From a virus: DNA of 32,828 nucleotides. The position numbers and the translations under genes were made by a program. The stretch covers positions 1 through 32,828 of IMG/VR virus record IMGVR_UViG_3300048102_000066; one strand, given 5' to 3'. Of this stretch, positions 6,430 through 7,815 are shown one piece after another (the stretch's first letter is position 1; each line of letters opens with the position of its first letter). The notes below the pieces were generated by a model, which made no database searches, was not told where the DNA came from, and saw only the letters and a program-made list of their open reading frames with translations.

Positions 6430-6801
6430 TTATCCAAGGTCTATAGACACCTTAATTTCGCCAGCATGTAGGTGCATATGCTTATCTGGTGCCTTGAAGC
6501 CAGCTCTGTCCAAGATATCCTTGCTAGCTTCTAGCTGAACGTACTCACTCTTGGCACCACCAGATAAGGACACAAGCCGAGCCGCGGCCAAGGTAGCACT
6601 CACGCCTAACTGTTCACCTATCGCTTGCATCATGTACGCCTGCACATGCGGGAGCTTGAGAGTCTTCTGTGCTGTCACTCTACCTGCATCACCCTTAGCG
6701 TAGCCAGCAATCTCAGCGGCATCTTTTATGGTACAGCCTCTTGCTACTAATGTATCCACCAAAGCAGTCTGTTTATCGGTTAGCTTAACTACACTTGTCA
6801 T
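6430..6801 (-). CDS. terS: terminase small subunit
   Basis: This 123-aa protein starts at ATG 6801. It recognises phage DNA and loads the large subunit. The N-terminal helix-turn-helix region reads LTDKQTALVDTLVARGCTIK followed by DAAEIAGYAKGDAGRVTAQK, typical of small terminases of the Terminase_2-like type. The C-terminal part has an AxRLVxLSGGAKSEYVQLEA segment probably used for oligomerisation. ATG 6801 follows GGGGGG at RBS distance. The frame can be extended to a TTG at 6855, but that TTG coincides with a TTGACA -35-like box, so I prefer 6801. It is the first gene of the late operon. Confidence 0.85.
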   Translation of the reverse strand: MTSVVKLTDKQTALVDTLVARGCTIKDAAEIAGYAKGDAGRVTAQKTLKLPHVQAYMMQAIGEQLGVSATLAAARLVSLSGGAKSEYVQLEASKDILDRAGFKAPDKHMHLHAGEIKVSIDLG

Positions 6802-6828
6802 CTGCCCCCCCTTTGGTTCCCCCCCACT

Positions 6829-6855
6829 TTCATACCTTTCTAAACGGCTTGTCAA
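6829..6855 (-). promoter_or_regulatory. candidate late promoter
   Basis: On the - strand a perfect TTGACA (6855-6850) is followed after 15 bp by TATGAA (6834-6829), 4 of 6 to the sigma-70 -10 consensus. The spacing is short, so strength is uncertain. It would start the late transcript just before the terS RBS. Its -35 overlaps that of the divergent early promoter. Confidence 0.35.
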
Positions 6856-6876
6856 CGCACAAAAAGAACATTTAAT
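6849..6876 (+). promoter_or_regulatory. candidate early promoter (leader RNA / 129-aa gene)
   Basis: TTGTCA (6849-6854, 5 of 6 to consensus) lies 16 bp before TTTAAT (6871-6876, 5 of 6). A start near 6883 would give a transcript containing the whole structured leader at 6977-7276 and the 129-aa gene. The -35 overlaps the divergent TTGACA, so the two promoters probably exclude each other. Confidence 0.5.
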
Positions 6877-6976
6877 ACATTTAAAGGATCAGTCATAACA
6901 CGATCCCCCTTGTTGTCAGAAGGATGTAGGTGACTGTCTTAGACAAAGACCTCCAATGACTATGTGACGCCGCCAA

Positions 6977-7276
6977 CCCCCGCTGTGAATCCTTAGCAGG
7001 TCATATACCACCAGCCGCGCAACGGCTGGCTCAATCAGGAAAGGCAAGCCGCGCCAACCCGCCGAACCATGTGAATCCTACGCGATGACATGCCTCCATA
7101 GCCCTTGGCTATTCCACCATGTAATCCCTGCCAAGCTATATCTCGTATGTATCTGGCGTTTGAGTAGTTCAACGCTTGGAGGATTCATCAGGCCCCGCGT
7201 CTTGTCTTTCCTGATTGTCCATGACCTTTAGGATTCATGGCGGGGGCAGTCCTCGCCACCTAATCAATGGAGGACT
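6977..7276 (+). ncRNA. large structured leader RNA with riboswitch-like SD-masking switch
   Basis: This 477-bp gene gap folds into nested long-range stems on the + strand. P1: 6977-6993 with 7230-7246, 17 pairs including two G-U. P2: 6998-7004 with 7221-7227, 7 perfect pairs. Side hairpin: CCAGCCG/CGGCTGG 7011-7029. P4: 7032-7053 with 7196-7217, 20 Watson-Crick pairs, one G-U and one mismatch, with the perfect 12-mer CAATCAGGAAAG outermost. P5: 7071-7079 with 7180-7188, 9 pairs including one G-U. Apical hairpins lie at 7098-7112 (closed by ACATG/CATGT 7088-7122) and 7131-7136 with 7174-7179. All G-U pairs would be A-C mismatches on the other strand, so the + strand RNA is the likely product. 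Downstream, AGTCCTC (7248-7254) pairs perfectly with the SD region GAGGACT (7270-7276). A competing hairpin 7239-7257 uses both the P1 3' strand and most of this anti-SD. No known RNA family is recognised. Confidence 0.7.
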
Positions 7277-7278
7277 AA

Positions 7279-7668
7279 ATGTCTAAGAAAGTAACCAACA
7301 ACCTTGTAGCTGACATCAAGCGTGACCATGTTCTGACAGATCGTACAGTTTACAGTCAACTCTCATATCGTTTTGAAAATATCATTCAATCTATACGTTG
7401 GAATATCAAAAACAAACAAGAAAAGATTGAAGCTATCGATCAAATCGTCCAAGATGGACATACATTCAACCAAGAAACAGGATCACAAATTGAGCCTGAT
7501 TGGGTACAGCTTTCTAACAACAGACAATGGCAAGTTGACCAACAGGATGTCGAACAAACACTGCTTGAATACTTCATCAAGGCACAGAAAGAACTGTTTG
7601 TTGATGATGTACACAAAGCTAAGTCACAGGCAGATGCCTTTGAATCTCTCAAGCGTATAGCCAGCTAA
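7279..7668 (+). CDS. unknown 129-aa early protein under the structured leader
   Basis: This soluble, helical, Gln/Lys/Asp-rich protein has no motif I recognise. N-terminal residues are charged (VADIKRDHVLTDRTVYS), the middle reads IRWNIKNKQEKIEAIDQIVQ, and the C-terminus is VHKAKSQADAFESLKRIAS. The start is ATG 7279 with GGAGG at 7269-7273. It forms a transcription unit of its own: promoter candidate at 6849-6876, roughly 300-nt structured leader, gene, then a strong terminator at 7681-7711. A leader that can mask its RBS implies that its level is tightly controlled. It could be an early regulator or host take-over protein, but nothing in its sequence decides this. Confidence 0.88.
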   Translation: MSKKVTNNLVADIKRDHVLTDRTVYSQLSYRFENIIQSIRWNIKNKQEKIEAIDQIVQDGHTFNQETGSQIEPDWVQLSNNRQWQVDQQDVEQTLLEYFIKAQKELFVDDVHKAKSQADAFESLKRIAS

Positions 7669-7680
7669 TCTCTCCCCACT

Positions 7681-7711
7681 GCCTCGGTGCTTCGGCATCG
7701 GGGCTTTTTTT
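7681..7711 (+). terminator. intrinsic terminator, UUCG loop and U7 tail
   Basis: A 10-bp stem GCCTCGGTGC/GCATCGGGGC closes on a TTCG tetraloop (7681-7704), with two G-U pairs, followed directly by seven T (7705-7711). It lies 13 bp after the 129-aa gene and isolates it from the rest of the early arm. Confidence 0.93.
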
Positions 7712-7755: not shown

Positions 7756-7784
7756 TTGTTGCAGAGTGCAACTAACTGTTATAC
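7756..7784 (+). promoter_or_regulatory. candidate promoter with overlapping operator-like palindrome
   Basis: A promoter is needed after the 7681-7711 terminator. TTGTTG (7756-7761) and TTATAC (7779-7784) are 17 bp apart, with TATACA one base on as an alternative -10. The near-palindrome TTGCAGAGTGCAA (7759-7771) overlaps the -35 and spacer, as an operator would. It matches 12 of 13 bases of the palindrome at 2323-2335 read on the other strand. Confidence 0.45.
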
Positions 7785-7815
7785 ACTGCAAGTACGCAGT
7801 AGAACTGAGGAAAAA

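What the first reader, a model, noticed from the sequence alone, without database searches (positions are those of the whole stretch)
6977..7276. A large structured leader RNA with a riboswitch-like switch in front of an unknown phage gene
Seen: four nested, mutually consistent long-range stems pair 6977-6993 with 7230-7246 (17 pairs), 6998-7004 with 7221-7227 (7), 7032-7053 with 7196-7217 (22 positions, one mismatch) and 7071-7079 with 7180-7188 (9). Branch hairpins fill the space between. Of 55 positions, 50 are Watson-Crick, four are G-U on the + strand and one is a mismatch. The wobbles would be A-C on the - strand, which points to a + strand RNA. Downstream, AGTCCTC (7248-7254) can mask the SD region (7270-7276), while a rival hairpin 7239-7257 captures this anti-SD and the 3' strand of the closing stem. 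If the closing stem forms, the SD is hidden; if it opens, the rival hairpin frees the SD. Inferred: a ligand- or protein-sensing control element, or a functional phage RNA (a packaging RNA is thinkable, as terS lies just across). I recognise no known family.
Basis: partly seen in the sequence, partly recalled or inferred. Interest (0 to 1): 0.92.

Follow-up and report, generated by a model that had tools for sequence, protein, structure and literature searches.

The report
Giant fold-back element in marine phages
Between the early and late genes of a large group of marine phages sits one very long hairpin, here about 457 bases, whose sequence changes quickly while its self-pairing is kept, even where it overlaps protein-coding sequence, and no known RNA family matches it.

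Summary
The stems reported at 6977-7246 are real (-123 kcal/mol, z -8.8), but they are only the inner part of a larger object. In the window one imperfect hairpin spans about 6886-7342. Its outer arms pair the first ~85 nt of the intergenic region with the Shine-Dalgarno, start codon and first ~21 codons of gene 1. It is the only long palindrome in the window.

37 of 44 non-redundant relatives have the same fold-back, with little shared sequence. One apical domain shows double changes in 11 of 13 pairs. In locus L109 and in the cultured Pelagibacter phage EXVC031P Hodr the arms cover all of gene 1 and ~265 nt of terS. In Hodr this complementarity far exceeds synonymous-codon shuffles.

After correcting for mutation bias and alignment noise, one-sided changes favour G-U on the minus strand 2.6-fold, and unpaired bases have an RNA-like composition on the minus strand. 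Most likely this is a late-strand structured RNA, antisense to the start of gene 1, acting at the early/late switch. A single-stranded DNA element, or an RNA switch on gene 1, remain open. No promoter for a spanning transcript was found, so function is unproven. No Rfam family matches.

The parts
6886..7342 (-). whole fold-back element in the window: one long imperfect hairpin with an apical branched domain
   Evidence: strand-neutral inverted-repeat alignment (score 42; shuffles at most 14) and minus-strand fold
6886..6969 (.). left outer arm, a degenerate inverted copy of the gene-1 start
   Evidence: pairs with 7253-7342, 66 Watson-Crick pairs
7253..7342 (.). right outer arm: gene-1 SD, ATG and first ~21 codons
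7238..7258 (.). rival local hairpin that shares a strand with the closing stem; a hairpin at this distance (37-46 nt) from the gene-1 ATG recurs in most relatives
7279..7668 (+). gene 1 (129 aa), predicted helical coiled-coil protein, unknown function, conserved as a family
7681..7704 (+). intrinsic terminator after gene 1
6430..6801 (-). terS, first gene of the late operon
   Evidence: PHROG terminase small subunit, E 2.9e-9; start codon from sequence
6805..6860 (-). conserved terS promoter region: TTGTGCGTTGACA, about 17-18 nt spacer, TATAAT-like hexamer, then two G-tracts
   Evidence: alignment of 33 loci

Best explanation
SHOWN: a single long intrastrand fold-back sits at the divergent early/late junction, and its base pairing is maintained while its sequence turns over, including in protein-coding sequence. 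SHOWN, moderately strong: the constraint acts on the minus (late) strand as a single-stranded nucleic acid. INFERRED: that strand is RNA, made by transcription running leftward through the start of gene 1 and the intergenic region toward terS. Its 5' arm is antisense to the gene-1 ribosome-binding site and first codons, and it is normally locked into a long rod by pairing with the RNA's own 3' arm. INFERRED function: a structured late-strand leader or antisense RNA acting in the early-to-late switch. By opening its base, for example through the conserved strand-swapping hairpin, it could silence gene 1 and tune late (terS) expression.
For: Inverted repeat in 37 of 44 non-redundant phages. It is the only such palindrome in the window, the 15.5 kb Hodr stretch and L011. 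One apical helix: 13 pairs, 11 with double changes, 100% paired in 10 sequences, versus 32-50% of all pairs when slid. In L109 and Hodr the arms extend over all of gene 1 and 264-265 nt of terS, with nearly the same end points. In Hodr the coding-coding complementarity scores 48 against a synonymous-shuffle maximum of 22. Strand: in locally well-aligned close relatives AC:GU (+ letters) is 255:90, neutral expectation 1.08, excess 2.6, leave-one-family-out 2.1-2.8. Bases unpaired in both folds are A 36, G 28, U 24, C 11% on the minus strand. The minus strand folds better in 43 of 44, partly a matter of base composition.
Against: No sigma-70-like promoter was found that would make a minus transcript spanning the element. 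The known terS promoter lies inside or left of it, pointing outward. The class A helix shows no wobble intermediates at all, unusual for RNA. Hodr itself shows no strand asymmetry. The rival hairpin sits at a fixed distance from the gene-1 ATG, and the left arm end often lies near where a + transcript starting from TTGTCA would begin; both fit a + mRNA at least as well. The same strand signal could come from single-stranded DNA.
Confidence: 0.42

Rival explanations
1. Plus-strand leader of gene-1 mRNA: the 5' end of the transcript pairs with its own SD, start codon and first ~20 codons, and the rival hairpin opens this lock. An RNA switch on gene-1 translation, close to the first reader's idea but with a different masking arm.
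For: SD and ATG lie inside the outer stem across the family. The SD/start duplex matched or beat at least 198 of 200 shuffled leaders in 28 of 44 phages. The rival hairpin lies 37-46 nt before the ATG in most. The left arm ends about 30 nt after TTGTCA in many. Gene 1 plus terminator forms a complete + unit.
Against: Wobble tolerance is on the wrong strand: AC 255 versus GU 90, neutral ratio 1.08. G-U is below composition expectation in the arms, 45 versus 124. In L006, L086, L089, L109 and Hodr the arms run left through the terS promoter into or toward terS, where no + promoter was seen.
Confidence: 0.2
2. Single-stranded DNA element: the minus strand is exposed during replication or end resection and folds back, serving as a single-strand origin, primer or end-protecting hairpin.
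For: No promoter outside the arms on either strand. The arms run across promoters and into both divergent genes in Hodr and L109. No wobble intermediates in the class A helix. The phage encodes a RecE-like exonuclease, an SSB-like protein and an O-like initiator.
Against: Unpaired-base composition looks like RNA loops. Tailed phages with terminase are not known to need a hairpin of 0.4-1 kb. No evidence that genome ends lie here.
Confidence: 0.23
3. By-product: an old inverted duplication kept palindromic by template switching during replication, with no function of its own.
For: Strictly coupled double changes without intermediates in one helix; similarity highest near the centre in Hodr.
Against: Pairing persists in coding sequence through bulges of 1-2 nt that conversion could not leave in frame, and beyond synonymous shuffles. 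Recurrent fixed architecture in very divergent phages.
Confidence: 0.1

Closest known systems
Phage T4 genes e, soc, 49, I-TevI leader structures (PMC3014915)
   Same: ribosome-binding site and start codon lie in a helix formed with upstream sequence, between transcription phases
   Different: those are short + strand hairpins; here the fold is 0.4-1 kb, enters coding sequence, and strand evidence points to the opposite strand
GOLLD and ROOL large phage RNAs (PMC12286853)
   Same: large structured noncoding RNA in phages, function unknown
   Different: they have Rfam models and conserved cores, often near tRNA islands; none of that here
phi29 packaging RNA (pRNA), from general knowledge
   Same: structure kept while sequence diverges; lies near packaging genes here
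   Different: about 174 nt and tied to a protein-primed packaging system; this phage has terL/terS
single-strand origins of rolling-circle replicons and parvovirus terminal hairpins, from general knowledge
   Same: long imperfect intrastrand palindromes selected on one strand
   Different: no rolling-circle initiator or terminal location shown here

Membership tests
Any Rfam family (including riboswitches, GOLLD, ROOL, 6S, RNase P) | covariance-model match at gathering score | tested here: not met
   none in the window or relatives
Riboswitch | conserved ligand-binding core across relatives | tested here: not met
   interior is hypervariable and modular
Riboswitch | mutually exclusive closing stem and expression-platform hairpin next to an RBS | tested here: met
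   38 hairpins; 18 with significant upstream complement to the 5' arm
T4-type RBS-sequestering leader | SD/AUG paired with upstream sequence in the mRNA | tested here: inconclusive
   complementarity met; + transcript not shown, strand test against
phi29-type packaging RNA | protein-primed phi29-like packaging system | tested here: not met
   portal, TerL and TerS of tailed-phage type
Single-strand origin | strand-specific priming from folded ssDNA | not testable with these tools
   needs replication experiments

The most novel reading that the evidence does not exclude
A family-wide giant fold-back (0.4-1.1 kb) in double-stranded DNA phages, in which an early gene and the late packaging gene terS have co-evolved to be complementary within one strand, acting as a new kind of single-stranded nucleic-acid element (RNA or ssDNA) at the early/late switch.
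Probability: 0.55. Interest if true: 0.92.

Novelty: categorically new. Interest (0 to 1): 0.85.

Why it matters
If right, an abundant group of marine phages, including one that infects cultured Pelagibacter HTCC1062, carries a structural element conserved by pairing rather than by sequence and so invisible to sequence searches and to Rfam. It constrains two protein genes at once and sits at the early/late divergence. A cultured phage-host pair makes it directly testable.

Tried and rejected
Rfam at gathering and permissive thresholds: nothing. blastn of the element against named phages: nothing. Gene 1: no PHROG or Pfam match; AlphaFold model (pLDDT 83) a coiled coil without a significant PDB match. 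Conserved anti-SD masking: rejected. GNRA or UNCG loops as strand markers: too few. First one-sided-change test (1334 AC, 839 GU) was nearly explained by base composition once normalised; only the noise-filtered version is used as evidence. The raw mismatch asymmetry is likewise inflated by composition. Minus- and plus-strand promoters for a spanning transcript: none convincing. Genome termini at the locus: many contigs end near it, but the ends are spread out, not sharp. Literature searches found no description; one pelagiphage genome survey searched for the terms does not mention it.

Full report
OBSERVATION. A scan of the whole window for imperfect palindromes gives one outlier, centred at 7150 (score 60), with the next best at 19.5. 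The interval given was too small. Alignment of the intergenic region with gene 1 in inverted orientation shows pairing of 6886-6969 with 7253-7342, which contains the SD, start codon and first ~21 codons of gene 1. The minus-strand fold of 6830-7400 is one continuous rod between about 6886 and 7342.

SURROUNDINGS. The phage is a podovirus-like tailed phage with terS, terL, portal and internal virion proteins on the minus strand, and with a replication initiator, a RecE-like exonuclease and an SSB-like protein on the plus strand. The element lies between divergent early and late operons. Gene 1 ends at an intrinsic terminator (7681-7704). A conserved terS promoter (TTGTGCGTTGACA, about 17-18 nt, TATAAT-like, then two G-tracts) lies left of it.

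RELATIVES. Gene-1 relatives and terS relatives (at least 593 matching stretches, 80 kept) gave 68 intergenic regions, of which 44 are non-redundant. Interiors are hypervariable and modular; lengths run from about 220 to 690 nt in the 44 regions of 700 nt or less. All 44 fold better than the mean of 20 shuffles (mean z -6.2 on +, -7.3 on -). The inverted repeat with gene 1 stands clearly above shuffles in 37 of 44. Most of the exceptions have another kind of first gene, and one (L112) falls just under the cut. L042's start codon was mis-assigned in some calls. In a 96-column domain found in 10 distinct sequences (A5, minus strand), 11 of 13 pairs of one helix change on both sides, every cell is paired, and sliding the partner by 1-3 columns drops pairing over the 18 pairs from 98% to 32-50%.

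EXTREMES. In most phages the arms end near +60 to +70 of gene 1 and about 30 nt right of the terS -35 box. In L109 they continue over all of gene 1 and into terS (z 26 for the part beyond the intergenic region), ending at +490 of gene 1 and 265 nt inside terS. The only named relative, Pelagibacter phage EXVC031P Hodr (OQ414635), has the same extent: +486 and 264 nt. Its hairpin has 372 Watson-Crick pairs out of 433 aligned positions, with 54 gaps (alignment to +469). Complementarity between the two coding regions scores 48, against a mean of 12.9 and a maximum of 22 in 200 synonymous-codon shuffles of both genes. Pairing is therefore selected beyond protein sequence.

WHICH STRAND. Three tests. 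(a) Mismatches in the arms: A.C 299, C.T 259, G.U 45, G.G 13 in + letters. On the minus strand this is G-U and G-A on top, but base composition explains a good part of it. (b) One-sided changes at strand-neutral pairs between close relatives: a first version was nearly neutral after correction. Restricted to locally well-aligned columns, it gives AC 255 and GU 90, with a neutral ratio of 1.08 from unpaired sites of the same alignments; the excess is 2.6 and stays at 2.1-2.8 when any of the 17 families is left out. (c) Bases unpaired in both folds are, on the minus strand, A 36, G 28, U 24, C 11%. Silent sites of early genes are also G-poor on +, so (c) alone is not decisive. Together they favour the minus strand and speak against the + strand reading. 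They do not tell RNA from single-stranded DNA.

SWITCH. A local hairpin 37-46 nt before the gene-1 ATG recurs in most phages. In 18 of 38 its 5' arm also has a significant complement upstream, so closing stem and hairpin exclude each other. The SD-masking sequence it named does not recur.

MECHANISM. Shown: a fold-back under selection at the early/late junction. Inferred: a late-strand RNA, antisense to the gene-1 start and folded on itself, that takes part in shutting gene 1 and setting late expression. Missing: a promoter and a transcript. The + leader and ssDNA rivals are therefore kept at substantial probability.

COMPARISON. T4 uses helices to hide ribosome-binding sites from early transcripts (PMC3014915), a functional parallel on a much smaller scale. 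GOLLD and ROOL are large phage RNAs of unknown function (PMC12286853), but no Rfam model matches here. I found no described element of this build.

Noticed in passing
window 6805-6827 (minus strand), and relatives: Two G-tracts (GGGGGG, 4-7 nt such as AACACAA, GGGGGG) are strikingly conserved directly after the terS -10 region, where the late transcript should start.
   Followed up: partly
window about 7757-7795 and relatives: A plus-strand promoter-like sequence after gene 1 is followed by a palindrome CTGCANNNNTGCAG in several phages, likely an early promoter with an operator.
   Followed up: no
L041, L023, L048, L015 apical domains: A hairpin module (CAAGCCGCGCTTATCATGCGC...GCGCAAGCGGCTTG) appears inserted at the same place in otherwise similar domains.
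   Followed up: no
L042, L048-L050, L099, L052, L074 between promoter box and rod: A second recurrent element GGCCGTTGCGACA ... TGACGGACGTTGCA in longer intergenic regions.
   Followed up: no
L064, L069, L086, L089, L094 and relatives: Conserved direct repeats CTCACAAAGCACTCACAG just right of the terS promoter.
   Followed up: no
contig ranges: About 30 of 80 contigs end within 1.5 kb on the early side of terS versus roughly a dozen on the other side, perhaps because the hypervariable hairpin breaks assembly.
   Followed up: partly
window 7681-7704: Gene 1 is separated from the rest of the early operon by a strong terminator, so it may be its own transcription unit.
   Followed up: partly
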